From a virus, in IMG/VR virus record IMGVR_UViG_3300030061_001386, positions 1 through 64,000 of that record: a stretch of DNA of 64,000 nucleotides; one strand, 5' to 3'. This document shows positions 6,204-57,840 of this stretch, in pieces. The position numbers were made by a program, and so were the translations under genes. Position 1 is the stretch's first letter; each line of letters begins with the position of its first letter. A model generated the notes under the pieces. That model saw only the letters and a program-made list of their open reading frames with translations. It had not been told where the DNA came from and made no database searches.

Positions 6204-7283
6204 TCACGATATGAAATGTATTAGATTCTTTTTACCATCAACTATTTTATTTGCTTCTTCAAGCATAATGTCATGTTTGGTTTTCAAATCAATATTAGAA
6301 TCTGTCTCAGCAATTAAAATTGAGTTGTCATCATGCCTAATAATTTCTGCCGCAACAAACTTAGTCGCCGCTTCATGTATTGGTGCAGGAACTCTACCAT
6401 CACCCGCAACATATGCAACTCTAATTGAATGATTAGTGATGTGAGGATATTCTTGTAAAAAGAATATTTTCCCCTCACTTTTCATTTGCCAAAAGTCTCC
6501 TCTTCTTCTTTGGTCTTGATGGTCAGTAAACCCTTCTACTGTACCGAATGTAGAAGAAATTGTACAGTTAGACCCGTCATCACCTAGAAGTAATGAAGAT
6601 ATTACAATTGTATCTCCTTGTTCTGAATCAGTGGTAGCATAGAAGAAATCTGAAATATGTACGCTATCATTTCCGTTTGCCGTTACAGTTTTAGATGTAG
6701 TTTCTCCTGTAAACCTAGCCGTCTTCATAGGATATACTTCGTTGATAGCATCAACTATCTGACTTGCAGTAGTCTTAGGGCCGAAGTTATCAAAGAACTC
6801 AGTTGCTTCATCTAACTCAAATGTATATGTTCCTACCGTTAAAGATATCTTCCAAGCACTATTAGTTACAGTACTTGGTACTGTTAGTCTAGCAGTTGCT
6901 GATGCTAAGTCTTTCCAATTATTACCTTGATATATTTCTAACCTGACTAACTTCTGAACTTTAGGTTGAGATAGTTGTATGAACCCAACATAATCTTTGT
7001 ATGGTCTTACTGGGTATGCTCCCTGATTGAATGCTGTATCGAAAGAATGAAACTCTTCATGGTGCAATATTGGTCTATATGATTGTTTGATACTGTCATC
7101 TATTTTTTCTTCTACTCTTTTTATTATCTTACCTACTTCTGCTCTTGTAGGTGTTGTTGTATCAGAAAATGCTCCGATTTGTAATAAATTAGAAACATCT
7201 GTATGTGTAGTATAGTAGCCATTACCTAACGCATAACTAACATTAATATTTGTAAAATCACTTGGAGAACTTACTTTACCCAT
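6204..7283 (-). CDS. Head-tail adaptor-like protein
   Basis: 359 residues. An N-terminal helical section ('VGKIIKRVEEKIDDSIKQSY', about residues 65-84) is followed by a long beta-rich region and a C-terminal helix-turn-helix-like section ('IHEAATKFVAAEIIRHDD'). Helical ends with a central insertion are typical of phage head completion/adaptor proteins of the gp6/gp15 type, and the gene sits between head and tail blocks. The beta-rich insert could form a fibre-like decoration. RBS of weak quality; ATG at 7283. Confidence 0.6.
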   Translation of the reverse strand: MGKVSSPSDFTNINVSYALGNGYYTTHTDVSNLLQIGAFSDTTTPTRAEVGKIIKRVEEKIDDSIKQSYRPILHHEEFHSFDTAFNQGAYPVRPYKDYVGFIQLSQPKVQKLVRLEIYQGNNWKDLASATARLTVPSTVTNSAWKISLTVGTYTFELDEATEFFDNFGPKTTASQIVDAINEVYPMKTARFTGETTSKTVTANGNDSVHISDFFYATTDSEQGDTIVISSLLLGDDGSNCTISSTFGTVEGFTDHQDQRRRGDFWQMKSEGKIFFLQEYPHITNHSIRVAYVAGDGRVPAPIHEAATKFVAAEIIRHDDNSILIAETDSNIDLKTKHDIMLEEANKIVDGKKNLIHFIS

Positions 7284-7287
7284 CTAA

Positions 7288-9354
7288 TCACCTTTCTATC
7301 ATTTCCTTTAATCCTTCATACTCAGTATAAACTAATCTTAATTCATCAGCATCATTAGAATCAGTAAGGGTAGTTCTATTTTCTATTTGTTTATCTGAAG
7401 CACCTATTCCTCTTTCAGAAAATCTACCTGTTTTGAATCTATCTTTACCACCACTAGTACGCCGACCAATATTAGTATCTACTTGACTAGTAACTTTTAT
7501 TTTTCTACTAAACGTTAAGATTGGTATTCCTTCAGTATCGGATACTTTGAACTCAACATCTCCTTCTCTTTTCCAATCTTGACTTTCTTCTAACTGTTCT
7601 TTTATTGTAGACATTAATCCATCAGTATCATCAGCCTCTGCTAATAGTGGAATAATGTTAACTGATTCTCTATAATCCCCACTCTTGATGTTCTTTAGTA
7701 TTGCTTCTATTTTTGTTATGAAAGTAGTATGATTTCCGAAAGCAGGATAGTATGGTTTATTTTCAATGACTTGTTTACCATCTTTATCTTTTTTAGGAAT
7801 AATTTTTTGTTCTGTTTTTTCAGTTTTAGGATTTATAAAATCAATATTTTCATATTGTATTTCTTCTATCTCATTATCTTCTTGTAGGTTAAGATTATCT
7901 TGTTTTATATTAATTATTAACATAGAGAAAAAAGCGAGTAATTCCTTTCTTTTTTTCTCAGACAACACTTGTATAAACCTATCAAAAGGTGCTTCGTTTT
8001 TATCATACACATAACTACCCCAATTAGATTCTAAATCATCAAACAGTGATTTTAACATAAGAGTTCTTTTTGTCATATTTTTAACAGCAGATGTAAGTTT
8101 CTTATCTTCATCCTTTCCTCCACCTTTAACAGCCCATAAAATAAATGCTTCTTCATCTTCCCACTCTCTCATTTTCAGAGTAATACTTACTTGGCCTAAA
8201 TCAATTTTATTTGATTGCGGAGTTAATGCTCCTAGTATTGCATCCTTTAATCCTGATTTTCTTTGTGACCTAACTATCTCAATAAGTTCCTTTTCATTTG
8301 GGAGAGATATATCTTGCAAACTTTCCCAAAGTTCCTCTAAGTTTTCACTTCTATTGTCCGTGTTAAATGCTTCTTTCTTACCAAATGAGTTTAATTCATA
8401 TCTACCATTACCTAAAATCTTCAGACTAACAAGTTTGTTAGACCCCTTTGTTTCGGCTTTTCTTAACATCTTCTGAGTAATACCTGCATCATCATCTTCT
8501 TCCTCTTCCATACCTTCAGCAACTTCTCTATCCATTTCTGCTTGGTATGCTTCTTCTTCCTCTGCCTCTTTTTCTTTCTGAGTTTTTTTCTGTTCTGCTA
8601 TTTCCTTAACACTTAGATTCTTTCCTTTAATAGAATTAAATTGAAATGAATCTTCACCTAGTGTTCCATATCCTTCTACCTTGAACAGTTTAGTAAAATA
8701 CCCTTCAGTATCAATAGTAATATCTGTACCTGTTGTTGATAAGAACTCTTGTAGTGTGGATGGATATAGTACAGGCTCACTTCTATCAAATGCGCCTAAC
8801 AGTCTACTGCTTCGAGAAATGTATTTGTCTTTTGCTTTTTCTTGAGCAGGTTTAGTCTTCCTATCAGTATCATCTAACCCCTTACCATATCTGTCTCCTA
8901 AGAGTTTACTTACTTTCAAATCATTACCTAAATCAATAAGACGAGTATTTTGGTCATCCATCACATCTCTCAGACCTTCAGAGAATGCACGATTTTTACC
9001 ATCAGGTTGAATATAACCCATTCCTTGTAGTTCAAGTACTAGTTTGGACAATGGGGCTTTTTCTATAACAGAAAGAAACGATTGTAGATATTCATCATAT
9101 TCTTCCTCATCGAAATACAAGTCAGTACCTTTGTAGTCACTATCATCTAAAGTAATTAGATTTCGTGTGACCCTTCTAACCTTTTGCATGTTAGGTGTAT
9201 CTGATACAGAATTGAATACATATGCGGCTAGGTTTCTGAATAAAGGTTGGTTATCTAACAAATCTTCCCATTTACCTTTTTTATCTTTAGGAGTTAAAAC
9301 AAAACCTGTTTTTAGCCTATCTACCACCTTATCATTTACTCTTATATCCGGCAT
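7288..9354 (-). CDS. Large charged protein of the head-tail region, unknown
   Basis: 688 residues, very rich in Lys, Glu and Asp, with long helical segments and an acidic run of Glu around residues 265-290 likely to be coiled coil. No enzyme motif found. It lies between the Gln-rich minor protein and the adaptor-like protein, so it is probably a structural or internal virion protein. It lacks the terminal W tag found in many proteins of the upstream half of the operon. Confidence 0.7.
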   Translation of the reverse strand: MPDIRVNDKVVDRLKTGFVLTPKDKKGKWEDLLDNQPLFRNLAAYVFNSVSDTPNMQKVRRVTRNLITLDDSDYKGTDLYFDEEEYDEYLQSFLSVIEKAPLSKLVLELQGMGYIQPDGKNRAFSEGLRDVMDDQNTRLIDLGNDLKVSKLLGDRYGKGLDDTDRKTKPAQEKAKDKYISRSSRLLGAFDRSEPVLYPSTLQEFLSTTGTDITIDTEGYFTKLFKVEGYGTLGEDSFQFNSIKGKNLSVKEIAEQKKTQKEKEAEEEEAYQAEMDREVAEGMEEEEDDDAGITQKMLRKAETKGSNKLVSLKILGNGRYELNSFGKKEAFNTDNRSENLEELWESLQDISLPNEKELIEIVRSQRKSGLKDAILGALTPQSNKIDLGQVSITLKMREWEDEEAFILWAVKGGGKDEDKKLTSAVKNMTKRTLMLKSLFDDLESNWGSYVYDKNEAPFDRFIQVLSEKKRKELLAFFSMLIINIKQDNLNLQEDNEIEEIQYENIDFINPKTEKTEQKIIPKKDKDGKQVIENKPYYPAFGNHTTFITKIEAILKNIKSGDYRESVNIIPLLAEADDTDGLMSTIKEQLEESQDWKREGDVEFKVSDTEGIPILTFSRKIKVTSQVDTNIGRRTSGGKDRFKTGRFSERGIGASDKQIENRTTLTDSNDADELRLVYTEYEGLKEMIER

Positions 9355-9369
9355 TCATCAGACCCCAAC

Positions 9370-10080
9370 CTATGCAAGCCATTTAGCCCATGCAACTGCT
9401 TTACCCAAACCTGACGCTAAACCTAATCCACTTTGAGGTGGAGTATATGTCGGCTGTCCTGTTTGCGGGTCTATCCAATACGGATTGTTCATGTTGTCAT
9501 AACCACTTGGAGGAATAGGATAGCCACTACCGTTGTTCATAGCCATTTGCTGTTGGTTTAAGGTATTGTTAAAATTAGTACTCATATTGCCCCCTTGTAT
9601 CTGACTTGGGCTTAAGCCTTGAGGGTTAGGTGCGCCCATACCCATTTGTGGAGTTGTAGTAGGTGTCTGTTGTTGTGGAGAAGAGAAACCTTGTGCTTCT
9701 AGGTATTGTTGTTTAGCCATCCTTCTTTGCATAACAACTTCACTATTGATTGCAGTAGCCAATAGATTCTGCAAATCTAAATCAATATTTTCTTGCGTAA
9801 TACTAGTAAAATCAGAAAGTGCTTCAGGTGACATTACTAAGTTTCCACTTGAACTTTGATTGAACTCTAACTTAACTAACATTTGACTAACTGTTCTTGT
9901 AACTGTATCTTCAATTAGTTTTTCTAATGCTCCTAAGAATGCTTCTCCATGATACTGAAAAAAGTCTTCTACATGATTTTCTTGTAGTGTCAAAAGGTTG
10001 TTCATTGCTTTAAATTGAGTCTGCTGTTGCGCCCCAATTTGTGTTGATAAGTTACTATTGCTTGTTCCGAATAATCCCAT
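9370..10080 (-). CDS. Gln/Pro/Gly-rich minor structural protein
   Basis: 236 residues. Residues 1-115 are helical and Gln/Glu/Leu-rich; from about residue 120 on the sequence is low complexity (Gln, Pro, Gly, Asn, Met), ending in a small Gly/Ala-rich hydrophobic patch ('SGLGLASGLGKAVAWAKWLA'). It overlaps the stop of the upstream gene by one base. The layout suggests a flexible linker or anchor in the neck; no family is recognised. Confidence 0.65.
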   Translation of the reverse strand: MGLFGTSNSNLSTQIGAQQQTQFKAMNNLLTLQENHVEDFFQYHGEAFLGALEKLIEDTVTRTVSQMLVKLEFNQSSSGNLVMSPEALSDFTSITQENIDLDLQNLLATAINSEVVMQRRMAKQQYLEAQGFSSPQQQTPTTTPQMGMGAPNPQGLSPSQIQGGNMSTNFNNTLNQQQMAMNNGSGYPIPPSGYDNMNNPYWIDPQTGQPTYTPPQSGLGLASGLGKAVAWAKWLA

Positions 10081-10754
10081 TACTCTACCTCCTCTTGCTC
10101 CGAACCTGATACTACCTTAGCACCTTCAGTTAATAGTGTTTTGATTCTTTCGTTAATTCCGTTGTTTTCTATTACTAGTCTAAACAACTCTTCTTCCTTA
10201 GTTTCAGAAACACTAGAAGGAGGATGTATTGACCATCCTAAAGATGAAAGAGACTGTATATCTTGTTGCTTTAACCCTGTTAATGGCCCACTTGCTAATG
10301 GGTTTAGAGTTTTAACTGAAGGAATATAAGCACTAAAAGAAAGCCCATGTTCTTCTGCTAATATTTGTTGTTCTAACATTTCATATTGCCTGTGTATCTG
10401 AGCATGTTTTTCACAATAAGTACCACGCATTGGATATCCCTTTCGCACCTTATGTAATGGAAGTGGTGGCCTCATTGCATCCCCTGCTTCCCAAACCTTT
10501 TGTGAACCACATACTACACATCTATCTTTTAAGTTGTATTTGAATCTGTATGGTATCTTCAAGAACTTTTTCTTTTCAGGCATTAATATCTTAGTTATCT
10601 CTTTCAATTGTTTCTTTGGCTTTGTGTTTTTAAACTCATAAAACATTACCGCACCTGCGGCTCTTGCGGCTGAAAACCTATCTAGAAATGGGTTCGCTCC
10701 TGTATTCGCTGACTGTGCGCCAATCAAACTTGGTGGTTGGAATTGCATTGACAT
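10080..10754 (-). CDS. Zinc-binding protein of the neck region, unknown
   Basis: 224 residues. A central zinc site is likely: 'RCVVCGSQKVW' (CxxC) followed about 35 residues later by 'YCEKHAQIHRQYEMLEQQI', giving a C-C-C-H or C-C-C-H-H arrangement. The N-terminus is Ala/Phe-rich and the C-terminus acidic. It follows the GTPase gene and shares its operon with membrane proteins; the function is not evident. Confidence 0.65.
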   Translation of the reverse strand: MSMQFQPPSLIGAQSANTGANPFLDRFSAARAAGAVMFYEFKNTKPKKQLKEITKILMPEKKKFLKIPYRFKYNLKDRCVVCGSQKVWEAGDAMRPPLPLHKVRKGYPMRGTYCEKHAQIHRQYEMLEQQILAEEHGLSFSAYIPSVKTLNPLASGPLTGLKQQDIQSLSSLGWSIHPPSSVSETKEEELFRLVIENNGINERIKTLLTEGAKVVSGSEQEEVE

Positions 10755-10767
10755 CTATCTCTCTCCT

Positions 10768-11439
10768 CTAGTAGTCCCTTATCATTGTTAGGATTCCTCT
10801 ATATACCATCTCTGAATCAGATTTAGCACTTACAATATACTTATGACATGGGATTCCTTTATCATTTAACTTCTGCATCCCATTCCTAAATGACTCAAAT
10901 ATTGGGTGTTTTTCTATCTTACCTTCATAGTCATATTTGTCTTTCCATAAGTCGTATTTGTTAGCCCAAAGAGCAACAGCAATTGGGTAGTCGTGCATTT
11001 TCTTTTTCTTCTTTTTTCCTTTAACGTTCCAATAAGGAGAACAAATAGTATCCACTAAAAAAGTCCAACATAACTGTTGTTCTATATCGTAGTGTTTATC
11101 CATATGTCTATCATCTAACATGAATATAATATATTTAACATGTCGAGTACGCATATCTTCAACCCACTCAGTCCAAAATACAGTCTCTCCACCAACATCA
11201 GCAGTTTTGACAGTATGTGCATCACCATCTAATTTTACATACTTTCTAGATGCTCTCTTTAACCCAACCGTTCTATCTGTAATGGAAGGAACTTCACCTC
11301 TAGTTCTGAGTTGATGATGTAGTGTAGTTTTACCTGCTTTACTTGCTCCATATACCCCAAAAGGAATTGAGTGAAGTCTTTGATATACTTTGTTAAGTCC
11401 TTCAACAAGTAGTATAGCAAAACCTGCCATTACTGACAT
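10768..11439 (-). CDS. Ras/Arf-superfamily small GTPase
   Basis: 223 residues with all nucleotide-binding motifs of the Ras superfamily: G1 GASKAGKTT at residues 31-39, a G2 candidate Thr in 'SITDRTVG' (52-59), G3 DVGGE at 81-85 (the Arf-like DxGG form), G4 NKYD at 160-163 and G5 SAK at 204-206. A Lys run at 142-147 is an insertion. The N-terminal 14 residues are hydrophobic and may contact membrane. It sits in the late operon between a zinc protein and two predicted membrane proteins. Small GTPases act as switches on membranes in eukaryotes and archaea; in a virus particle or assembly module this is unusual. The family call is firm; the role is unknown. Confidence 0.85.
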   Translation of the reverse strand: MSVMAGFAILLVEGLNKVYQRLHSIPFGVYGASKAGKTTLHHQLRTRGEVPSITDRTVGLKRASRKYVKLDGDAHTVKTADVGGETVFWTEWVEDMRTRHVKYIIFMLDDRHMDKHYDIEQQLCWTFLVDTICSPYWNVKGKKKKKKMHDYPIAVALWANKYDLWKDKYDYEGKIEKHPIFESFRNGMQKLNDKGIPCHKYIVSAKSDSEMVYRGILTMIRDY

Positions 11440-11445
11440 TTTGCC

Positions 11446-11673
11446 TCAACCCCATAGATGATGCCAAAAACTAAACATTCCGTCTAATATCCATTGAAAT
11501 ACATTTATCCCAAAAAGAGGTAACATATGTCCAATAGAAAAACTAGCAACACAAGCAATACCACCCCAAAGAAAAAATCTTGCTCTTAAGAACCATATAT
11601 CAGCAGAATGCGCTCTTTGTAAATCATAGGCTAATGTGGATTCATCGAATCCCATTAGTATTTCTGAAACCAT
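11446..11673 (-). CDS. Small membrane protein beside the GTPase
   Basis: 75 residues. A strong hydrophobic segment spans about residues 31-52 ('FFLWGGIACVASFSIGHML') and a second, weaker one is rich in Phe/Trp near the C-terminus. The N-terminus is polar with acidic residues. It lies 6 bases upstream of the GTPase gene, so the two are co-translated and may act together at the host membrane or in an internal virion membrane patch. Confidence 0.7.
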   Translation of the reverse strand: MVSEILMGFDESTLAYDLQRAHSADIWFLRARFFLWGGIACVASFSIGHMLPLFGINVFQWILDGMFSFWHHLWG

Positions 11674-11682
11674 TCTTTACCC

Positions 11683-12144
11683 TCATTCATTGAATTGGGT
11701 TAAAAATGTTGGACTCAATGCGTTTTCGTTTGGTGTAACTGTTTGCATAAATGGAGTCTGAATCTCCCCATAGTTTTGTTGTTGGAATGTTTGATTAAAC
11801 TGACGTAATGAATCTCTAACTCTCTTACGGTTTTCTTCTTCTCTAGCCTTTCTGTTCCAATACCCGTCAATGTTTCTCTTTAGCAAGAACTCTTCTATTA
11901 TGTCATTCAAGAACAAATCGAATACTGCCTTCATAATCATAATGAGTCCTACGGTAGAAATACCAAATAGAACTGCATGAGAGAATCCCCCATATGGAAA
12001 GTTAACTCCTACCATTTGGTAAAAGTAAATATTAACACCACTCATTGCTCCTACGAACAATATGGTCATAATTAATCTTGTATCTGTATCAATTGATGGC
12101 AAAGTATCAACTCCATGTACAGGAGTATGCCCCACCACTCCCAC
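11683..12144 (-). CDS. Membrane protein with two predicted transmembrane helices
   Basis: 153 residues from a GTG at 12144. Hydrophobic segments at about residues 24-45 and 57-80 are followed by a basic helical tail (RKAREEENRKRVRDSL) and a Gln/Asn-rich end. The start is uncertain: the frame overlaps the upstream gene by 38 bases and an ATG near residue 26 would cut the first helix. Genomic context links it to the adjacent membrane protein and GTPase. Confidence 0.65.
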   Translation of the reverse strand: MGVVGHTPVHGVDTLPSIDTDTRLIMTILFVGAMSGVNIYFYQMVGVNFPYGGFSHAVLFGISTVGLIMIMKAVFDLFLNDIIEEFLLKRNIDGYWNRKAREEENRKRVRDSLRQFNQTFQQQNYGEIQTPFMQTVTPNENALSPTFLTQFNE

Positions 12145-12391
12145 TTAGTATTGCGGTAATACCAGTACCCATTGCTCTACCATGAAGGTCAAACTCTGTT
12201 GTTGTATTAGCGGTTAGAATTAATCTAGCAACTTCATCAGATGAACCAACAGTAGTACTAGCACTATCGTAGATTTTTAGTGTTGCAGTACCAGTTGAAG
12301 TGAAATGAACACTATTTAGTTTACAAACACCAGTATTCAAAACTGCACTAGCGGTTCTAACGGGGCTACCTGCGACTCCCCCGACCATCAT
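12107..12391 (-). CDS. Small beta-rich head protein, decoration-like
   Basis: 94 residues, Thr/Ser/Gly/Ala-rich, with a beta pattern ('GTATLKIYDSAS') that resembles small capsid-decorating or minor head proteins of many marine phages. It lies two genes after the major capsid gene. Start ATG at 12391 overlaps the stop of the upstream gene (ATGA); a second ATG follows directly. Confidence 0.6.
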   Translation of the reverse strand: MMVGGVAGSPVRTASAVLNTGVCKLNSVHFTSTGTATLKIYDSASTTVGSSDEVARLILTANTTTEFDLHGRAMGTGITAILSGSGGAYSCTWS

Positions 12392-12807
12392 TTCACATCC
12401 TTCTTAGTGGTCTTTTTAGCAGGTGTTTTCTTTGTGGTTGTTTTCTTAGCAGGTGTTTTCTTCACCTCTTCTTTAGCAGGAGCAATAGTTTCAACAACTG
12501 TTTCCACTACTTCTTCTACTTTCTTTTTGGTGGCTGACTTTTTCTTAGGGTATAGAACTGATAAAACATTATCTTCTTCTGCAACATTCAAATGTGCTTT
12601 CAGATGATTTAGTTTTCGACCTTCTAGTGTTGAAATGTGCTTCTTATCGTCTTGTGTAAAATCAATAAGAATTGATTCATCACCGCAATAATCTATTGCA
12701 ATGTTTGCAGGAACTTCGCACCATGTATGCGCTCCTATCGAATATTCGCCTTTTCCTATTACTATCTCGCCTTCAGGTCTATGTCTTACTAGTTTCATTA
12801 ATGCCAT
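12388..12807 (-). CDS. Small head protein with histone-H1-like Lys/Pro/Ala/Thr tail
   Basis: 139 residues. Residues 1-85 form a compact domain with two cysteines ('IDYCGDESILIDF'); residues about 88-139 are a low-complexity tail with repeats of KTPAKKTT, like histone H1 or bacterial HU-type extensions that bind nucleic acid. The DNA shows the repeat as two near copies of AGCAGGTGTTTTCTT around 12,418-12,467. It is the first gene after the major capsid gene and the strong hairpin. The role may be DNA contact inside the head or at the connector. Confidence 0.65.
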   Translation of the reverse strand: MALMKLVRHRPEGEIVIGKGEYSIGAHTWCEVPANIAIDYCGDESILIDFTQDDKKHISTLEGRKLNHLKAHLNVAEEDNVLSVLYPKKKSATKKKVEEVVETVVETIAPAKEEVKKTPAKKTTTKKTPAKKTTKKDVK

Positions 12808-12900: not shown

Positions 12901-14295
12901 TTAAGCACTCTTTAGGTTAGTAATCTTACCTTGTCCTTTGAAGAAGGAACAGCATGTCTCACCCATAGTGCGGTACATACCTTGGTTTCCAAGTTTACCA
13001 ACACCGAATGGGTTTCCACTAGTAATACCATCTTCGAAGTATTGTGTAGGTTTCATTACAGATAGCCATAGGTGGTCAGTATCTAGAATCAGTATATCAC
13101 TGATACGGTTAGATGTACTCAGACCAGTTGAAGGCATGTCCTTAGCAGGTATAATTGGTATGTCATAGTATGTTGCAACTCTGAAACCAACTTCTTGACC
13201 CTTAACACCACGAACACCATTATGGGTAGGAACAATCTCTTTCCTGTCCATGAATCTTTCTTGTGCTTGTAGCAAGTCAGAAAGTTTCTGTATGGTATCA
13301 TATCCAGTAAGGATAACTTTAGGGTTTCCACCGTTTTGGCGTATTTTCCTAATCATATCGTTAAGTAGGCTCAATGTTAGAACTCTACAATCACCGGATG
13401 CATAACCTGCACCGAAATCAACTTCAGCATCTAGGAAAGAAGCAACACCTGTGTATGTGAAGTTTCCACTACTACCTGTGTTTCCAACTGTTACAGTTCT
13501 TGTTGAACCATAGATAGTTGCCGCATCTGCAATGTTAGCAAAAGTACCATCGTTGTTCTTACTGTTGTGGAAGACGTTATCTTCCTGCATCATAGCCAAC
13601 TCAGCCGCAGATGAAACTATCTTCATTAGTGAAGTATAGTTCTTCTCAATACCTGTTGTACCGTTCTCGTTGTACTTCTCAAGAGGCATAACTAGCATCT
13701 TGCTTTGTACTTCAGCGTGTAGTTTACCCATGTCCTCACGAACAATTGCTCTGATGTCACCGACACCATCATCAATTGCGGCAAGTTCCATTCCAAGTTC
13801 TGAGAACTCAAACAGATGTGCAATAGTCTTAGGGCTAACGTATAGTTTTGTGTACTCAGGTGCTAATGCATGGAAGTCTGTACCAATTACAGCATTCTCT
13901 CCAACTCCACCAATAGTATCTGCTCTTGGTGTTGCCGCATCAGCAGAACTAATTGAGCCAGTTACAGCGTTAGAACCTGTTGCGAAATTAGAACCACTAC
14001 CACCAATAGGTCGGCTCTTTAGAACTCTCCAACCTGAAGATGTGTATGGCCTCTTTGCAATCATAGAAAGAGGGTTTACTTCTTGGTTCAGCATAGACCA
14101 AACTTTCTGTCCATAAAGAACGTTGTATAAGTCGCCTAGTCCAGCCGCCGCAGTAAAGGGGTTTGAAGAAGCATCGTGAGGAGTTCCGAATCCTCCAACA
14201 ACTCCACCCGCTTTGAGTAGAGCATTACCGGAGTTTCCACCGTATCCGTACGTAGCCGCTTCTAAGTCTTTCATTGTCTTAATATATCCTGACAT
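12901..14295 (-). CDS. Major capsid protein (HK97-fold candidate)
   Basis: 464 residues. The gene directly follows the prohead protease, the invariant order in HK97-type viruses. The sequence begins with a Gly/Ala-rich arm, continues with 'LYNVLYGQKVWSMLNQEVNP' (the end of an N-arm/E-loop region in such proteins) and has a spine-helix-like section and late 'HLWLSVMKPTQYFEDG', a pattern often seen near the C-terminus of phage capsid proteins. There is no large insertion. It is set off downstream by the strong hairpin at 12830-12871 and upstream by a possible dedicated promoter ahead of the protease gene. Confidence 0.85.
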   Translation of the reverse strand: MSGYIKTMKDLEAATYGYGGNSGNALLKAGGVVGGFGTPHDASSNPFTAAAGLGDLYNVLYGQKVWSMLNQEVNPLSMIAKRPYTSSGWRVLKSRPIGGSGSNFATGSNAVTGSISSADAATPRADTIGGVGENAVIGTDFHALAPEYTKLYVSPKTIAHLFEFSELGMELAAIDDGVGDIRAIVREDMGKLHAEVQSKMLVMPLEKYNENGTTGIEKNYTSLMKIVSSAAELAMMQEDNVFHNSKNNDGTFANIADAATIYGSTRTVTVGNTGSSGNFTYTGVASFLDAEVDFGAGYASGDCRVLTLSLLNDMIRKIRQNGGNPKVILTGYDTIQKLSDLLQAQERFMDRKEIVPTHNGVRGVKGQEVGFRVATYYDIPIIPAKDMPSTGLSTSNRISDILILDTDHLWLSVMKPTQYFEDGITSGNPFGVGKLGNQGMYRTMGETCCSFFKGQGKITNLKSA

Positions 14296-15558: not shown

Positions 15559-18153
15559 TTAATCCTTTTTAGGTGTTGGGAAGTCTAATACAGCATATGT
15601 GTCTTCAGTAATATTCCATTTGTTAGGGTTCTCTTTATCCTCTAACATCTCTTGCTTCTTACCTGTCCATGCAATCCAACTCTTTTTCTCATCTAACGGG
15701 ACTACTCTGAAATGCATTCGAGTTTCAAACTTATCTCCATCAAGACGATATTCGTGATAACCATCTTTTTGTATTCCTAATTCAATCTCTCCTTTATCTA
15801 ACACTTTCTTTGACTCTCCTATTTTCTTAGAAACAATAGCAGGATACTTACCTGATTTACCGAATAGGTCATAGATATCTGTATTGCCTTCTATGTCTAT
15901 TGTCCAAGCCATACGTTCATCTTGGTAATCTATGATTAAATCTACATTATCGTCTTCTCTCAAAACGATTGTATATTTTCCCATGTTGTCTTTCTTCACT
16001 AGTTCTTCAATATCTTTTTCTAAAATATCTTCTCTAGCAGTAAACTTGTTCGGATGTAAATAGACTAAATCTTCTTGTTGTTTCATCCACGCCATTAGTT
16101 TACCATCATCTGAATCAAATAAATCTGCAAATGCTCCTTGATGTTTATCTACAACAAAGTCTAGTATTTTGCTAAATGGTAAGTTATCCCTACCACTTTC
16201 TAATATCTCATTCCTAATTGCTAACCTAAACATAGAACGTTTGCTTTTCATTATGTTAGCAACTTGTTCTTTCCACAAATCTATGTTATGTAAAGCATTT
16301 TTCTGCATTAGGCTATCTCCTTCAAACCCATAAATAGTAAATCCATTTAAGTCTTCTTTGAGTATTATTTCAGCAGTACCATGTGTATGGTCTGTAATGT
16401 AATATCCTTTCTTGACTTTCTTTTTCTGACCTCTTGGGTTTTGCAATCCACTAGTAACTTCAAACATCCCACCCACCTTATCTCCAAAGGTATATCCCAT
16501 TGCACTCAATGATTTTTTTGTCTTACTCGCAAGTTGTTCTAATGTCTCAACGGAATCAGAACGGGTGACTTCCGGTATCTCTATTACCTTAGCAGAAAAT
16601 AATTTGAACCCGTCTTTACCTTTTTTCACTTCATCAACTTTAACTCTAACAATACTACCAATCTTAACAGATTCTTTTGTATTCAAAGCCTTACCTACTT
16701 CAAGATAATCTTTATCTTCAAACTCAATTGTTTTGTAATTTCTTGCGGTTTCAGCATTTACTGGGCCAATACCCATAGTGTAAGAGTGTAAATTGCTTTT
16801 AGTTTTCTTAGCATCTAGCACTACTACATCCAAATCAACAAACTTCTTCCACTTAATCCACTTAGGATTTTTCTTAACTCCAATGTAATATGTTGATTCT
16901 ATGTCTTTAATTACAACTCCCTCAGAAGCAGGAAGTTGCATAATCTCTTTTGCATATTCTTCTACTTCCTTAATTGAATCTGCTATCCTTGTGTCTTTCT
17001 TGGATGGGAAGGCTAAGTCTTGTGATGAATGTTGAGAGTATTGATAGAGTAGAATATTATGTCTTTCTCTTAATGTTTCATCAGCAATGTTCTTTCCCTC
17101 ATGAACCATTATATCAAAAACATGCGCTCGTAGTTCCCCGCCCTTTTTATTTTTGAAAACGTGTGCAATTGTGTCTGCTCGGTGTAGTGGCTCATCTTTC
17201 ATAAACAACATTAGTTCACCATCTAATATACAGTCATTGAATGATTTCTTTTCAAGAGCCTTAACTTGCTCAGGACATTTACTAGTTATGTCTTTCTCGT
17301 TGTAAGAATAAATCGTTACCTTATTATTGAACTTATGAAGTTGTATTCTCATACCATCATATTTTTCTTGGACTATGTATTCTCCTGTCAACCCCTTAAC
17401 TTCTTTTAAATCATCAATCTCAAATATTCTATACATTGGTTTATTTGGAATTATGAAGTCAATAGATTGCTTTTCTTCATCACTTTTTGCAATATCTAAA
17501 TCTACTAAACTATCCCACTTATCTTCACTATATTCAGAACCGTAGACTTTTTGTAATAATTTGTATGCTCCCTTGAACTTGTTTTCTATTCTACGGGTAT
17601 CTTCATCTTCTTTACCATAGTGTTCTATAATGTAAAGTGGAATATCTTTAGGTTCTAAATCAAGTCCCATGTAGTCTCTTGTAATCTCATCAGGTTTCAA
17701 ATCAACTGCTAACCATGCTTTATCGGGAAGAGGATTAGCGTGAGAACGTAAAGCATAATGTATGAATGCGGCAAACGTAGACTCATCTTTGAGTAAAGTA
17801 GCAATTACCTTATCACCTAACTGTTTAGAAAATGGGTCACTTACTTCATCTGATTTGAATCTCATTTCCTTTATTGCTTCATACAATTCTTTAGCCTGTC
17901 TTGAACTAGGATTATATGTTTCATCAGAAAACGCTGTGTCTTCTTTTAGATATGTTTTGAGTTCTCTAGTAAAATCATCTATTGTATCGAACTGTTCTCT
18001 AACATCTTTTACTGTTTTTTTCCAAGCATCACCATATTCATCAGGGTTTTCTTTTGCAGAAAGATAAGAATACCTAACACGCTCAAAGAAGTCCAATACT
18101 TTCTTAGTCATTGTATTGGTTTCTTTCTCAAAAGATAACCCTGTCTGTGGCAT
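15559..18153 (-). CDS. Late ATP-dependent DNA ligase, multidomain
   Basis: 864 residues. Residues 1-235 are helical and resemble no domain I know. The nucleotidyltransferase core starts at KYDGMR (catalytic Lys264), followed by an 'LDGELM' motif, 'HVFDIMVHEGK', 'EGVVIKD' and 'KWIKWKKF' (motifs III, IV and V). An OB-type domain follows to about residue 510. The C-terminal third contains 'FETRMHFRVVPLDEKKSWIAW', which recalls proteins related to the LigD phosphoesterase region in other viruses, though this is memory rather than a search. It lies between protease and portal, so it is made late and may be packaged, in contrast to the shorter early ligase at 57827-59377. RBS GGGGG precedes the ATG at 18153; a second ATG is 14 codons in. 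Confidence 0.8.
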   Translation of the reverse strand: MPQTGLSFEKETNTMTKKVLDFFERVRYSYLSAKENPDEYGDAWKKTVKDVREQFDTIDDFTRELKTYLKEDTAFSDETYNPSSRQAKELYEAIKEMRFKSDEVSDPFSKQLGDKVIATLLKDESTFAAFIHYALRSHANPLPDKAWLAVDLKPDEITRDYMGLDLEPKDIPLYIIEHYGKEDEDTRRIENKFKGAYKLLQKVYGSEYSEDKWDSLVDLDIAKSDEEKQSIDFIIPNKPMYRIFEIDDLKEVKGLTGEYIVQEKYDGMRIQLHKFNNKVTIYSYNEKDITSKCPEQVKALEKKSFNDCILDGELMLFMKDEPLHRADTIAHVFKNKKGGELRAHVFDIMVHEGKNIADETLRERHNILLYQYSQHSSQDLAFPSKKDTRIADSIKEVEEYAKEIMQLPASEGVVIKDIESTYYIGVKKNPKWIKWKKFVDLDVVVLDAKKTKSNLHSYTMGIGPVNAETARNYKTIEFEDKDYLEVGKALNTKESVKIGSIVRVKVDEVKKGKDGFKLFSAKVIEIPEVTRSDSVETLEQLASKTKKSLSAMGYTFGDKVGGMFEVTSGLQNPRGQKKKVKKGYYITDHTHGTAEIILKEDLNGFTIYGFEGDSLMQKNALHNIDLWKEQVANIMKSKRSMFRLAIRNEILESGRDNLPFSKILDFVVDKHQGAFADLFDSDDGKLMAWMKQQEDLVYLHPNKFTAREDILEKDIEELVKKDNMGKYTIVLREDDNVDLIIDYQDERMAWTIDIEGNTDIYDLFGKSGKYPAIVSKKIGESKKVLDKGEIELGIQKDGYHEYRLDGDKFETRMHFRVVPLDEKKSWIAWTGKKQEMLEDKENPNKWNITEDTYAVLDFPTPKKD

Positions 18154-42518: not shown

Positions 42519-42704
42519 ATGTCAAGACTTATTGAAGGCAAGGTTTACCCTTATGAGTTAGAGGTTGGTCACTCTAAATCAGGTTCACACCAAGTATTAG
42601 TAATCAAAAGCCTAAAGGTCAAAGGTGATGACTTAGCCAAGGCATTAGAAGAGTTGCATTCAGCAATCAATGTATTCAATGAAATACTAAACCAAAATAA
42701 TTAG
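42519..42704 (+). CDS. Small regulon protein on the plus strand
   Basis: 61 residues from the ATG at 42519 (MSRLIEGKVYPYELEV...), 25 bp from the centre of its TATA box and without RBS, hence probably leaderless; the longer frame from 42453 would cross the operator. Short beta-beta-alpha layout with a C-terminal helix ('ALEELHSAINVFNEILNQN'). Confidence 0.65.
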   Translation: MSRLIEGKVYPYELEVGHSKSGSHQVLVIKSLKVKGDDLAKALEELHSAINVFNEILNQNN

Positions 42705-43004
42705 ATTCCCATATGGGGCTGAAAGTGGATTGGATGAAATCACAGGATTTATCCCACTCTAGGATTTGTCAGAACGTTTGTTCTTGTATCCTCTCTAATC
42801 TCAACGACATATACTCACTATTCTAGAACAGTTGTGTATAATTACTCGGTTGAGCATGATTGAACAACAAACTTCCCACTGCTTAGAGAACGAAAAAATA
42901 TCACCGTTCACCGAAGCCCCATATATTTCACATTCTTGGTAGACCAATTCGCCCTATAAACGGCCAGAACTTGGGACTACTACTTTCTGTAAATAACGTA
43001 ATGA
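42705..43004. other. Non-coding spacer with small hairpins and one TATA-like site
   Basis: No credible frame. AGAAC-GTTT-GTTCT (42771-42784) is a small hairpin. CCCCATATAT at 42917-42926 repeats the TATA form of the regulon on the plus strand but has no palindrome next to it and no gene after it. Confidence 0.5.
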
Positions 43005-43145
43005 AAAAAGCGAAAACGCAGGTAATAGAGAGGTAGCCGAGTACACAATTTCGGTGTGTACCAAAACCGTAACCGAGGTTCTGAGTAAACGTAACTTGCT
43101 AGCGTAGACGTTTACAATAAGAACCGTCAAGTCGTGGGACTACTT
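43005..43145 (-). ncRNA. Candidate structured non-coding RNA driven by promoter 6
   Basis: Read on the minus strand from about 43,140 to a T run at 43,009-43,004. Arms 43077-43082/43120-43125 (GGTTCT/AGAACC) enclose a second perfect arm pair 43085-43092/43108-43115 (GTAAACGT/ACGTTTAC), giving a 14-bp interrupted stem. A separate stem 43041-43047/43055-43061 (GTACACA/TGTGTAC) follows. No start codon gives more than a dozen residues. The promoter has the same layout as those of protein genes, and the T run fits archaeal termination. Confidence 0.6.
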
Positions 43146-43164
43146 TCTATTAACTGTATTTTTA

Positions 43165-43229
43165 GTATATATGGGGATGCCGACAAAGTGGCCTACCATA
43201 TGGTTGTAATTTTACAATAGAAATAAACT
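43165..43229 (-). promoter_or_regulatory. Palindrome-TATA promoter 6, no protein gene downstream
   Basis: CAAAGT 43184-43189, ACCATATGGT 43195-43204; distal arm absent but AATAGAAATAAACT is at 43216-43229 as in promoter 4. TATA box CCCCATATATAC is the complement of 43165-43176. Confidence 0.75.
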
Positions 43230-43309
43230 CGGCGGAGGTGTTCGCAGAGGTGGCAGGGATATATATACCGAATCGGGGATTTTAGTATTGTCAGCGAGTG
43301 TCATTCATT

Positions 43310-43790
43310 CGCATGTTTATCCTAATGATATATTTAATCAACACCTTATCTTAGATACACAACCTTTGACACCTACAAATCAATACAATTTATTGGGTAT
43401 AAACTACCCTTCCCATATAGTATAATATAATATACTAATATTAGTATGGTATAACATATAATTAATATCTATATTGTAACAGTCTCTGATTCTGCTTTCG
43501 TTTATCCTCGTTTATCTAGTCAAATGATAAATGGGAACGCTAGAAAAGTGGATTTCTGAGTCATATAGATAGATTTAGTATATTCATTTATCATTTATTA
43601 TTATTATACATATATTATATCTCATACATTCACACTCAATATCTACTATCACCTACTACTATTATTATTATAGGAGCATGGTGATAAACGTGATAAACGA
43701 TAGATGAATAGGAAAATCTGCGAATCCTAAATAATTTCGCAGAATAATGTTTATCATTGGCCTGTATAATTGGCCGATAAACGACATCAC
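43310..43790. other. Candidate replication origin: iterons around an AT-rich tract
   Basis: CGTTTATC at 43499-43506 and 43509-43516; the reverse form GATAAACG at 43683-43690, 43692-43699 and 43776-43783; close variants at 43314-43321, 43526-43533, 43585-43592 and 43748-43755. Between and left of them lies an A/T-only-like tract (43,381-43,480 and 43,561-43,660). The last two sites form an inverted repeat around GGCC (43748-43783). It lies near the switch from leftward to rightward transcription, where origins often are. No initiator gene is visible in the window. Confidence 0.5.
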
Positions 43791-43989
43791 ACTCAACAAT
43801 TTATGGAAGACGAGAAATGCGTTTGGCATACTTAGCGGTATGTCATCTGACAAGCGAAGTAGTGACTTTAGGAGGACTACCATATCCGAATAGAGGAATG
43901 ACGGAGTGACAGAGTATTGGCATAAGTTGAGAATTGTAGGTTACTTACAGTAATTGAACAGATAGATACAGGAGTTCGCCCTTCAAACA
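43791..43989. other. Spacer, nothing recognised
   Basis: No frame, repeat or fold worth reporting. Confidence 0.4.
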
Positions 43990-44310
43990 AGATGAGGACA
44001 AGCCCTACTTCGGTAGGTGAGTTTGACTTTTGTGAGATTGAATACCTAACCCTTGGGAGTTGTCCTTGGGTTGCTTTGCGCTATAAAAAAGAGCAGTCGG
44101 TATTGCGGTAAATATCATCAATGTGTTACTTCAGCATATTACATCACCTCCGAGTAAGACGGCATAGTACGTCTGTTCACCCTACACATCACACTCGCAA
44201 GAGTAAGGCGTTCAATTGCATAAGTCCTGACGAGGCAATAAGAACTTAATGAAGACAAAACCAGTTGCGGTGCAAAGTTTTCACCTTATTCTCAACAGTA
44301 GAGTTTACTG
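43990..44310 (+). ncRNA. Candidate structured RNA with UUCG and GNRA tetraloops
   Basis: On the plus strand CCTAC-TTCG-GTAGG (44004-44017) is a UUCG-capped hairpin enclosed by GGACAA/TTGTCC (43996-44001 with 44060-44065). AGACG/CGTCT pair at 44157-44161 and 44170-44174. ACTC-GCAA-GAGT (44193-44204) is GNRA-capped, and its first arm can instead pair with CGAGT at 44151-44155. CAGTA/TACTG pair at 44296-44300 and 44306-44310. Both tetraloops are correct only on the plus strand. No protein frame. Not a recognisable tRNA or RNase P RNA. Confidence 0.45.
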
Positions 44311-44480
44311 AAATAAAAAAGACAAATCGAGGTGGATTAGATTTCCATCCAAAGCAGTGATTAAATGACCTGCCCAATCTTGAATTAATTTTCGAGTATC
44401 AGTAATGTGGTTTTCGCCCATGTCTTTCTCTACTATTCACACTCAAAGTACAAGGTTTTTACTTCCTAAAACTATATTTG
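44311..44480. other. Spacer, nothing recognised
   Basis: No frame longer than a few codons with an RBS, and no clear repeat. Confidence 0.4.
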
Positions 44481-44481
44481 A

Positions 44482-44614
44482 TTGGGGCTGATTACCCCAA
44501 CTTAACTGAGGCTCAACCCGACATCATGTGTCGGAAAATCCTATTCATAGGTCTTACTCAGAATAAGATAGTTTATCCTTGTGCGTACAAATGGTGTTGG
44601 GTAGCCCTCAGTTA
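44482..44614 (+). ncRNA. Candidate compact folded RNA upstream of the early operon
   Basis: A perfect 9-bp closing stem TAACTGAGG/CCTCAGTTA (44503-44511 with 44606-44614) encloses hairpins CCGACA/TGTCGG (44518-44523 with 44529-44534), CCTAT/ATAGG (44540-44551) and TCTTA/TAAGA (44552-44568). A further hairpin TTGGGG/CCCCAA (44482-44500) adjoins it. This is a multi-branched domain. Strand is not fixed by the pairing; it lies 118 bases before the first plus-strand gene, so a leader element or independent RNA is possible. Confidence 0.5.
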
Positions 44615-44731
44615 GTTCTGCTAGGGTAACATCTAAGAGTTGGGTTTTGATTAGGTAATAAATTATGGTCGATTGAGCATCGTAGGTAATTTTCCCAACT
44701 AATCACATTCAAAGAAAGGAGAGAAATAAAA

Positions 44732-53113: not shown

Positions 53114-53988
53114 AGTGTATGGAGTGTGGCTCAACTGAATCATCGTTTGATGATAGGTTGGGCTACCACATATGTTCTGATTGTGGTCTTGTGCTTAATG
53201 TCGAGATATTCGAGGAAACATCTAGTGCAATGGAATCAGATTCTAAATATGCTATGGGCAGTACAATACAATTCGGTAATAGAAGTAAAACGTCTGTAAA
53301 ACATAGTCTAAGACTCAACCATATTAAGACTGAGGCAAAGAGTAAGTTTTGGTCAGAAGGAGATATAGCAACTCACAATACATGTATGATGTATCTATCT
53401 CCTTACAAACCGTATAAACTCTCATTAAGAAGAGAGGTAGAACACTACTATCAAGAGTTACAACGAAATAGAGTATTAGTTGGTCTACCAATAGAAGTTA
53501 GAGCGGCAGGTTTAGCATACTTCATTCTAAAGGATGAAAGTATTTTCGTATCGCTCAAGTCTTTACAGAAAACAACAGGAGTTCATAGAAGTAAGATAAT
53601 GAGGGCTTCTAAAAAGATAGCCAAGTTCTATCGTAAGTCTCATATCTTTGGTGTTAGAAACGTTCATGATGTAGTGACTGTATGTTTAGATAAGTCAGGG
53701 GCAGATATCAAAGACAGAAAACCTGTTTATACATTCGTTGACTATGTATCTAACTATTATGAAACTGTTAACGTTAGAGTGGGTAATGGTGAAATCGCAG
53801 GAGCAGTATATATTGCATGTAAAATGTTAGATTACCCTGTATTACAGAGAGAACTAGCATCAACAGTCAATATTAGTGAAGTAACATTAAGAATACACAT
53901 AAAAAAAATATGTGAACTAATACAGATAGAAAGAACTATCTTGAATAAATATAATGTAAATAAAATAATTGGAGGAATAAGAGAATGA
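53110..53988 (+). CDS. tfb: Transcription initiation factor B (TFB/TFIIB-like)
   Basis: 292 residues from a GTG at 53110. N-terminal zinc ribbon CMECGS ... CSDCGLV (residues 3-26), a B-reader/linker-like acidic region, and two cyclin-fold repeats (about 105-195 and 200-285, the second with 'EIAGAVYIACKMLDYPV' and 'ASTVNISEVTLRIHIKKI', a helix-turn-helix that in TFB contacts the BRE). TFB bridges TBP-TATA and RNA polymerase. A viral copy can redirect host polymerase to viral promoters. Stop overlaps the E1-like start. Confidence 0.9.
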   Translation: MKCMECGSTESSFDDRLGYHICSDCGLVLNVEIFEETSSAMESDSKYAMGSTIQFGNRSKTSVKHSLRLNHIKTEAKSKFWSEGDIATHNTCMMYLSPYKPYKLSLRREVEHYYQELQRNRVLVGLPIEVRAAGLAYFILKDESIFVSLKSLQKTTGVHRSKIMRASKKIAKFYRKSHIFGVRNVHDVVTVCLDKSGADIKDRKPVYTFVDYVSNYYETVNVRVGNGEIAGAVYIACKMLDYPVLQRELASTVNISEVTLRIHIKKICELIQIERTILNKYNVNKIIGGIRE

Positions 53989-54575
53989 GAAAAGTAATGA
54001 TAATAGGAACAGGTGGAATTGGAAGTTATTTAGTTGACTTCCTATCGAGAATTGGTATTTATGACATAACAGTATTTGATGACGATAAGTTAGAAGAGAA
54101 GAATCTAACATATCAAAACTTCATGGCGGATATGGTAGGGCAGACAAAGGTTAATGCTCTCAATAATAGATTGAAGGTAAATGGGTTAAAACCTGTAAAG
54201 CCTCAACCGTATCAAGTATTAGTAGAGAAGCAATTGAAAGGGTATGACCTAGTAGTTTGTTGTGCTGATAACCTAGCAGTAAGGCGATTATTATATCGTC
54301 AAGGTTATGGTGATGATGCTAAAACTAAGTGGTTAGACTTGAGAGCGCAAGGCCGTAATGCGGCATTAATCTCTTACAAGGTTAACGCTAATCTCGTTGA
54401 TGATTTGTTAGCAGGTGCAGAAGGTTCATTCAGTTGTCAAGGCGGAGATTGGGATGGTAGTCCTGAACAAGTAAACTGTATGCAAGTTGCAATTGCAGGT
54501 ATTGCAGTACAGTGGATTCAAAGATGGTGGCAAGACAATGAGAACGTTGCTGATAAAATGGTGGTGAATGTTTGA
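53985..54575 (+). CDS. Minimal E1/ThiF/MoeB-like adenylating enzyme
   Basis: 196 residues. Rossmann GTGGIGS at residues 8-14, then 'FDDDKLEEKNLTYQNF' (31-46) with the Asp, Asn40 and Gln44 of the ATP site, Lys55 in 'VGQTKVNAL', and 'CCADN' at 92-96. Cys151 (FSCQGG) and Cys165 (VNCMQ) are catalytic-cysteine candidates. The CxxC zinc pairs of MoeB/ThiF are absent and the length is that of a bare adenylation domain, like phage- and plasmid-borne ThiF proteins. It is expected to adenylate the C-terminal Gly of a ubiquitin-like protein; the one at 49239 is the natural partner. Translation is coupled to TFB by ATGA overlap. Confidence 0.85.
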   Translation: MRKVMIIGTGGIGSYLVDFLSRIGIYDITVFDDDKLEEKNLTYQNFMADMVGQTKVNALNNRLKVNGLKPVKPQPYQVLVEKQLKGYDLVVCCADNLAVRRLLYRQGYGDDAKTKWLDLRAQGRNAALISYKVNANLVDDLLAGAEGSFSCQGGDWDGSPEQVNCMQVAIAGIAVQWIQRWWQDNENVADKMVVNV

Positions 54576-57613: not shown

Positions 57614-57840
57614 GTAAAGAATTAGAAACGGTATTAAGAATACCAAGAAATGCGACAATGGAAATGATAGTAAAGAAAGGACAATACTACAAAATAGATG
57701 TAGTAGATGTTAGGTGGTACACTAATGGTAAACCGTCTAGAAAAGGAATCCGAATGAACATGGATGAACTAGATGTTTTACTGAAAGGTTTGACTAAGAT
57801 TAATGATAATTATAAGGTGAACTCCGATGAGTCTAATTAG
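57610..57840 (+). CDS. Small protein before DNA ligase
   Basis: 76 residues from the ATG at 57610, which overlaps the upstream stop. Beta-rich, basic middle. Overlaps the ligase start by 14 bases. Unknown. Confidence 0.6.
   Translation: MSKELETVLRIPRNATMEMIVKKGQYYKIDVVDVRWYTNGKPSRKGIRMNMDELDVLLKGLTKINDNYKVNSDESN

What the first reader, a model, noticed from the sequence alone, without database searches (positions are those of the whole stretch)
10768..12144. Small GTPase with two membrane proteins inside the virion gene block
All five G motifs of the Ras/Arf superfamily are present, including an Arf-like DVGGE. It is embedded between capsid and connector genes next to two small membrane proteins, so it is made late. 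Nucleotide switches on membranes are not part of any tailed-virus assembly scheme I know; it could drive envelope contact at lysis, entry or release.
Basis: partly seen in the sequence, partly recalled or inferred. Interest (0 to 1): 0.75.

Follow-up and report, generated by a model that had tools for sequence, protein, structure and literature searches.

The report
Membrane GTPase switch of magroviruses
A very common but uncultured group of ocean viruses that infect archaea carries, in the middle of its capsid and tail genes, a well-preserved Ras/Arf-like GTPase switch together with two small membrane proteins; no tailed virus was known to use such a switch, and it may control how the virus works on its host's cell membrane.

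Summary
Window 10771-11439 (-) encodes a 223-aa Ras-superfamily G domain with G1-G5. It lies directly downstream of two small membrane proteins (11446-11673; ~11683-12102) and upstream of a conserved Cys/His protein (10080-10754), inside the late block between major capsid protein (MCP) and head-tail adaptor. The record (92.7 kb) looks like a magrovirus: Druskaviridae-related MCP, split PolB, TFB, RFC. The GTPase is not a stray host gene. Every MCP-bearing locus found with over 3 kb of downstream sequence has it (282 with, 0 without), in fixed order. In 161 distinct full-length proteins, down to 58% identity, the G1-G4 residues are invariant; one short-ORF contig (L184) has lost G1/G2. It evolves as slowly as the MCP (dN/dS 0.02-0.07). 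Druskaviridae lack it; no phage, plasmid or cellular homologue was found. Arf-type signs: hydrophobic N-helix, T-x-G, D-x-GG-[QE]-x6-W. All Pfam scores are below cutoff, so it is a separate family. Best reading: a membrane-recruited late switch acting with the two membrane proteins at the host membrane, most likely for release or membrane-site assembly. The closest functional analogue is the euryarchaeal vesiculating GTPase ArvA; its partners ArvB and ArvC are absent. The mechanism is inferred, not shown.

The parts
10771..11439 (-). Small GTPase, 223 aa: N-terminal hydrophobic/amphipathic helix (residues 2-22), then Ras-like G domain; G1 31-38, G2 T57, G3 81-85 (DVGGE), G4 160-163 (NKYD), G5 204-206 (SAK); basic loop about 139-147
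11446..11673 (-). 75-aa membrane protein, one clear TM segment (about residues 38-56); cytosolic-type N-terminal motif with near-invariant RAHSAD
   Evidence: adjacent to the GTPase in the loci read
11683..12102 (-). About 139-aa membrane protein (probable TTG start 12102; ORF opens at GTG 12144), two TM segments, charged cytosolic-type C-terminal region
10080..10754 (-). 224-aa cytosolic protein with conserved C-x2-C ... C-x2-H (probable zinc site), directly downstream of the GTPase; candidate regulator or effector
   Evidence: no Pfam or fold match
9370..10080 (-). 236-aa protein, next gene of the conserved block, low-complexity C-terminal part
12107..12391 (-). 94-aa protein upstream of the module; same position as HVTV-1 gp123; possible capsid-associated protein (inference)
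12388..12807 (-). 139-aa Lys/Ala-rich protein following the MCP
12901..14295 (-). Major capsid protein (HK97-like; relatives in HVTV-1/HCTV-1)
6204..7283 (-). Head-tail adaptor-like protein; its C-terminal part matches phrog_17057 and it resembles HVTV-1 gp125 by eye, which follows directly after the small genes in Druskaviridae

Best explanation
A virus-specific, core small GTPase that works as a late membrane switch. Made together with virion proteins, it is held at the host cytoplasmic membrane by its N-terminal helix and by the two co-encoded membrane proteins; the RAHSAD-containing cytosolic segment of the 75-aa protein is the best candidate docking site. In its GTP state it recruits or triggers a membrane step needed late in infection, most likely timed opening or remodelling of the envelope for release, or anchoring of assembly at the membrane. 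The adjacent Cys/His protein is a candidate regulator or effector. Shown: a G domain with all motifs kept, invariable gene neighbourhood, strong purifying selection, presence as a core gene. Inferred: GTP binding and hydrolysis, membrane localisation, partner contacts, timing, and the step served.
For: Catalytic residues invariant in 161 distinct relatives, with only E or Q at the catalytic-Gln position; only 3 E/Q changes on the tree. Gene order MCP - 2TM protein - 1TM protein - GTPase - Cys/His protein identical in 154 of 154 dereplicated loci. No MCP-bearing locus with over 3 kb downstream lacks it (282 vs 0). Median identity 0.66, equal to the MCP (0.65), and divergence most correlated with the 75-aa membrane protein (r 0.90, against 0.80 with the MCP). 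N-helix mean hydrophobicity 0.65 and moment 0.37 over 161 relatives; basic loop with net charge of mostly +2 to +5. RAHSAD conserved in at least 97% of 125 distinct 75-aa proteins. dN/dS 0.02-0.07. Functional precedent in Euryarchaeota: small GTPase ArvA with an N-terminal amphipathic helix drives vesicle budding in Haloferax, and a Zn-ribbon protein of its operon is a proposed GAP (PMC10927574).
Against: No experiment of any kind. Membrane association rests on hydropathy and neighbourhood. The higher GTPase/75-aa correlation could reflect physical linkage, since the other neighbour correlates almost as well (0.89). Nothing ties the module specifically to release; no lysis gene was recognised to compare with. 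The structure model is of modest confidence, with switch regions under pLDDT 50.
Confidence: 0.48

Rival explanations
1. Virion component for entry: the GTPase and the two membrane proteins are packaged in or on the particle and act at the membrane of the next cell during genome delivery.
For: Genes sit inside the virion block next to the capsid genes and evolve at the pace of the MCP. Druskaviridae also have a small one-TM protein (HVTV-1 gp124) at this place.
Against: GTP is hardly available outside a cell. The partner membrane proteins have 1-2 TM segments, which is unusual for a naked tailed particle. Profiles of the four module proteins do not match HVTV-1/HCTV-1.
Confidence: 0.17
2. Host-directed effector: the GTPase interferes with or replaces a host membrane GTPase system (ArvA-type vesiculation, SRP-receptor-like targeting, polarity), for example to insert the viral membrane proteins or change the cell surface.
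For: SRPRB is the top Pfam hit for the window protein, Arf and MMR_HSR1 are close. ArvA-type GTPases are widespread in Euryarchaeota (PMC10927574).
Against: Location in the late structural block rather than with early genes. No cellular homologue found in 84,980 species at pattern sensitivity. ArvB and a conserved ArvC are absent.
Confidence: 0.15
3. Assembly GTPase without a membrane role: a GTP-driven chaperone or checkpoint for head completion, portal or adaptor docking.
For: Position between MCP and adaptor genes; the downstream Cys/His protein and 236-aa protein are cytosolic by hydropathy.
Against: Two membrane proteins always lie immediately upstream and the GTPase starts with a hydrophobic helix. 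Druskaviridae, whose MCP and adaptor genes lie in the same order, manage without it.
Confidence: 0.12
4. Degenerate or structural G domain: nucleotide binding is no longer used and the fold serves as scaffold.
For: All family scores are below curated cutoffs; one contig (L184) lacks about 150 nt covering G1-G2.
Against: G1-G4 residues invariant in 161 of 161 distinct full-length relatives.
Confidence: 0.04

Closest known systems
ArvA (OapA, HVO_3014), archaeal vesiculating GTPase of Haloferax volcanii (PMC10927574)
   Same: Small single-domain GTPase of Euryarchaeota with N-terminal amphipathic helix; best Pfam neighbours PF01926/PF00025; operon with a zinc-ribbon protein; membrane budding function shown there.
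   Different: Viral late-block gene; two membrane proteins in the operon; no ArvB (PF09846) or conserved ArvC (PF09845) in the viral genomes; the downstream Cys/His protein has no Pfam match; direct sequence comparison with ArvA could not be run here.
Arf/Sar1/G-alpha branch of the Ras superfamily
   Same: T-x-G in switch I, D-x-GG-[QE] followed by Trp at +7, hydrophobic helix before strand 1 (motif comparison from general knowledge).
   Different: Ser rather than Gly at position 2, so no Arf-type myristoylation; Glu at the catalytic position in 117 of 161; Ras-type SAK G5; PF00025 score below cutoff.
SRP receptor beta subunit (PF09439)
   Same: Top Pfam hit of the window protein (20.4 bits, residues 30-115); membrane-bound GTPase.
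   Different: Below cutoff (25 bits); the SRP-receptor alpha partner was not looked for.
Ras/Rab GTPases of giant viruses (for example mimivirus Rab, PDB 5xc5)
   Same: Virus-encoded small GTPases; the viral fold matches listed.
   Different: Viruses of eukaryotes, a different virus realm; Rab/Ras-type proteins with no known fixed virion operon (general knowledge).
Druskaviridae (HVTV-1, HCTV-1) virion block
   Same: Related MCP and similar order MCP - small proteins - adaptor.
   Different: No GTPase, Cys/His protein or matching membrane proteins; only one small one-TM protein (gp124) at this place.

Membership tests
Ras-like small GTPase superfamily | G1, G3, G4 motifs present and conserved | tested here: met
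   161 of 161 full-length relatives
Ras-like small GTPase superfamily | Ras-type alpha/beta fold | tested here: met
   Low-confidence model (pLDDT 65), but about 1,000 PDB matches at E<=0.001 led by G-alpha, Rab and Ras
Ras-like small GTPase superfamily | GTP binding and hydrolysis | not testable with these tools
   Needs purified protein
Arf family (PF00025) | Score above curated cutoff | tested here: not met
   17.0 vs 22.3 bits; 13 of 20 relatives hit weakly
Arf family (PF00025) | Helix before the first strand, T-x-G, D-x-GG-Q-x6-W | tested here: met
   T57, G59, D81, GG83-84, W92 in 161/161; but Q replaced by E in 117
Arf family (PF00025) | Gly2 for N-myristoylation | tested here: not met
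   Ser2 is invariant in the 20-sequence alignment
ArvA vesiculating GTPase | Small GTPase with N-terminal amphipathic helix | tested here: met
ArvA vesiculating GTPase | ArvB (DUF2073, PF09846) in the operon | tested here: not met
   0 of 5 virus records
ArvA vesiculating GTPase | ArvC (DUF2072, PF09845) zinc-ribbon protein in the operon | tested here: not met
   Only a 23.3-bit hit on a charged coil region of the 688-aa protein, absent from close relative G001; the downstream Cys/His protein does not match
ArvA vesiculating GTPase | Sequence orthology to HVO_3014 | not tested
SRP receptor beta (PF09439) | Score above curated cutoff | tested here: not met
   20.4 vs 25 bits
Magrovirales (host virus) | About 90-110 kb, HK97 MCP related to Druskaviridae, own PolB (split), TFB, RFC, two divergent gene blocks | tested here: met
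   criteria from PMC10768690 and PMC12999244
Magrovirales (host virus) | Placement in a named family by reference genome | tested here: inconclusive
   Reference genomes ON649702 and OR863078 are not in the collections
Holin or lysis module | Membrane permeabilisation activity | not testable with these tools
   No convincing family match for the two membrane proteins

The most novel reading that the evidence does not exclude
Magroviruses encode their own GTPase-driven membrane-remodelling machine (GTPase, two membrane proteins, Cys/His regulator) that releases virions by budding, vesiculation or controlled envelope opening: a small-GTPase analogue of holin timing or ESCRT-type egress, and the first in any tailed virus.
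Probability: 0.25. Interest if true: 0.9.

Novelty: new variant of a known kind. Interest (0 to 1): 0.74.

Why it matters
Viruses of Marine Group II archaea are reported among the most abundant in the surface ocean, yet how tailed viruses of archaea leave their cells is largely unknown (general knowledge). A small GTPase kept as strictly as the capsid protein in all sampled members points to an essential nucleotide-controlled membrane step that textbook tailed-phage assembly does not have. It also adds a viral branch to the archaeal membrane GTPases that bear on the origin of eukaryotic vesicle traffic.

Tried and rejected
(1) Chance motifs or dead gene: rejected by motif shuffles, dN/dS and conservation. 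(2) Recent host-gene capture: rejected; it is in every sampled member and diverges in step with the MCP. (3) Homologue in Druskaviridae: profile search of the HVTV-1, HCTV-1 and vir335 regions found only the MCP. (4) ArvB/ArvC partners: absent; the OapC hit on the 688-aa protein was judged spurious (low-complexity region, not in relatives). (5) Identity of the Cys/His protein: no usable Pfam, PHROG or NCBIfam match; poor model (pTM 0.46) without fold hits. (6) The genome-contig scan found one locus only (L085), labelled Maricaulis but with magrovirus gene order, so a virus contig in a bin. (8) Papers on magroviruses held here do not mention a GTPase; Philosof 2017 and Prabhu 2025 are not held.

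Full report
What is there. The ORF at 10768-11439 on the minus strand encodes a 223-aa protein. It has an N-terminal helix (2-22) followed by a Ras-like domain with GASKAGKT, T57, DVGGE, NKYD and SAK. Library scores are weak but agree: SRPRB, Roc, Arf and MMR_HSR1 in Pfam, small_GTP in NCBIfam, all below cutoff. Over 20 relatives MMR_HSR1 is hit by all, Roc and SRPRB by 17, Arf by 13 and Ras by 11. The AlphaFold2 model has modest confidence (pLDDT 65) with poor switch regions, but its topology matches Ras, Rab and G-alpha at E about 1e-7. In the viral structure library the listed matches are GTPases of giant viruses; no tailed virus appears among them. tblastn against 50,697 phage records and 72,556 plasmids finds nothing.

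The virus. The window is part of a 92.7-kb IMG/VR record. The MCP matches HVTV-1/HCTV-1 at 24-26% identity. The genome has a split PolB, TFB-like protein, RFC-like ATPase, ThiF, DNA ligases, RNR, portal, terminase and tape measure, in two divergent blocks. This fits Magrovirales as described in PMC10768690 and PMC12999244. Distant members of the same set carry chaperonin genes, another reported magrovirus trait (PMC5332604). Host (Poseidoniales) is inferred from this kinship.

Distribution. Scans with the GTPase, MCP and Cys/His-protein profiles gave about 330 loci; some are the same contig fetched twice. 282 loci carry MCP and GTPase, and none with more than 3 kb after the MCP lacks it. The sampling is bounded: each scan keeps the best 80, so remoter magrovirus groups may not be covered. 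Among 161 distinct full-length proteins (58-100% identical to the window), the key residues of G1-G4, T57, G59, W89 and W92 are invariant; residue 85 is E in 117 and Q in 44, with 3 changes on a tree. One contig, L184, lacks about 150 nt covering G1-G2, a deletion or assembly error.

Neighbourhood. In 154 of 154 dereplicated loci the order is MCP, two-TM protein, one-TM protein, GTPase, Cys/His protein, all on one strand. The head protease and a DNA ligase precede the MCP, and the adaptor-like protein follows. Gaps between the module genes in the window are 6-13 nt, so a polycistronic late message is likely (inference). In Druskaviridae the adaptor gene follows the small post-MCP genes with no GTPase; HVTV-1 gp124, at this place, is a short one-TM protein but shows no profile match.

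Constraint. dN/dS is 0.02-0.07. Median pairwise identity of the GTPase (0.66) equals that of the MCP (0.65), above the Cys/His protein (0.53) and the membrane proteins (0.48, 0.52). GTPase divergence correlates with MCP at 0.80, Cys/His protein at 0.89 and 75-aa protein at 0.90. The 75-aa protein keeps RAHSAD in at least 97% of 125 distinct sequences while its TM part drifts. A soluble segment kept like this beside a switch protein suggests a binding site (inference).

Mechanism. The hydrophobic N-helix (mean hydrophobicity 0.65, moment 0.37, n=161) and a basic loop suggest membrane contact, as in Arf and ArvA. ArvA drives vesicle formation in Haloferax; its operon holds a Zn-ribbon protein whose loss raises vesiculation and which the authors propose as a GAP (PMC10927574). 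The virus has a comparable layout, a GTPase followed by a Cys/His protein, but its partners are not ArvB/ArvC homologues. I therefore say it may work like ArvA and do not file it as ArvA. My leading model is a late membrane switch, most likely for release or membrane-site assembly. Entry, host interference and non-membrane assembly roles remain open.

Novelty. The superfamily is known and virus-encoded small GTPases exist in giant viruses. New are a separate, strictly conserved small-GTPase family in tailed viruses, its fixed place in the virion operon and its membrane partners. I did not find it described in the papers available; the two main magrovirus papers not held (Philosof 2017, Prabhu 2025) may list the gene.

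Noticed in passing
15559-18153 (-) and 57827-59377 (+): Two ATP-dependent DNA ligases in one virus genome; the 864-aa one sits directly before the head protease and MCP, and relatives keep a ligase there too.
   Followed up: partly
L259:3023-4714 and L259:4922-5839 (record 66522-69338): Family-B DNA polymerase split into two ORFs, as reported for aoguangviruses.
   Followed up: partly
11446-11673: RAHSAD motif of the 75-aa membrane protein is nearly invariant although the rest of the protein drifts to below 50% identity.
   Followed up: partly
L184:11899-12418: GTPase gene with about 150 nt missing across G1-G2; the only such case among the contigs read.
   Followed up: yes
L085 (NZMJ01000101.1): A magrovirus contig filed in a Maricaulis metagenome-assembled genome, apparently a binning error.
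   Followed up: partly
L292 (IMGVR_UViG_3300021958_000021): 184.7-kb contig with this MCP, about twice the usual magrovirus size; could be a larger virus or a concatenated assembly.
   Followed up: no
7288-9354: 688-aa acidic protein between the module and the adaptor, poorly conserved in relatives; borderline OapC match on a charged coil region.
   Followed up: partly
about 42700-44730: Stretch with few ORFs between the two divergent gene blocks; could hold the origin, promoters or RNAs.
   Followed up: no
53985-54575: ThiF/E1-like protein of 196 aa in the replication block; function in the virus unknown.
   Followed up: no
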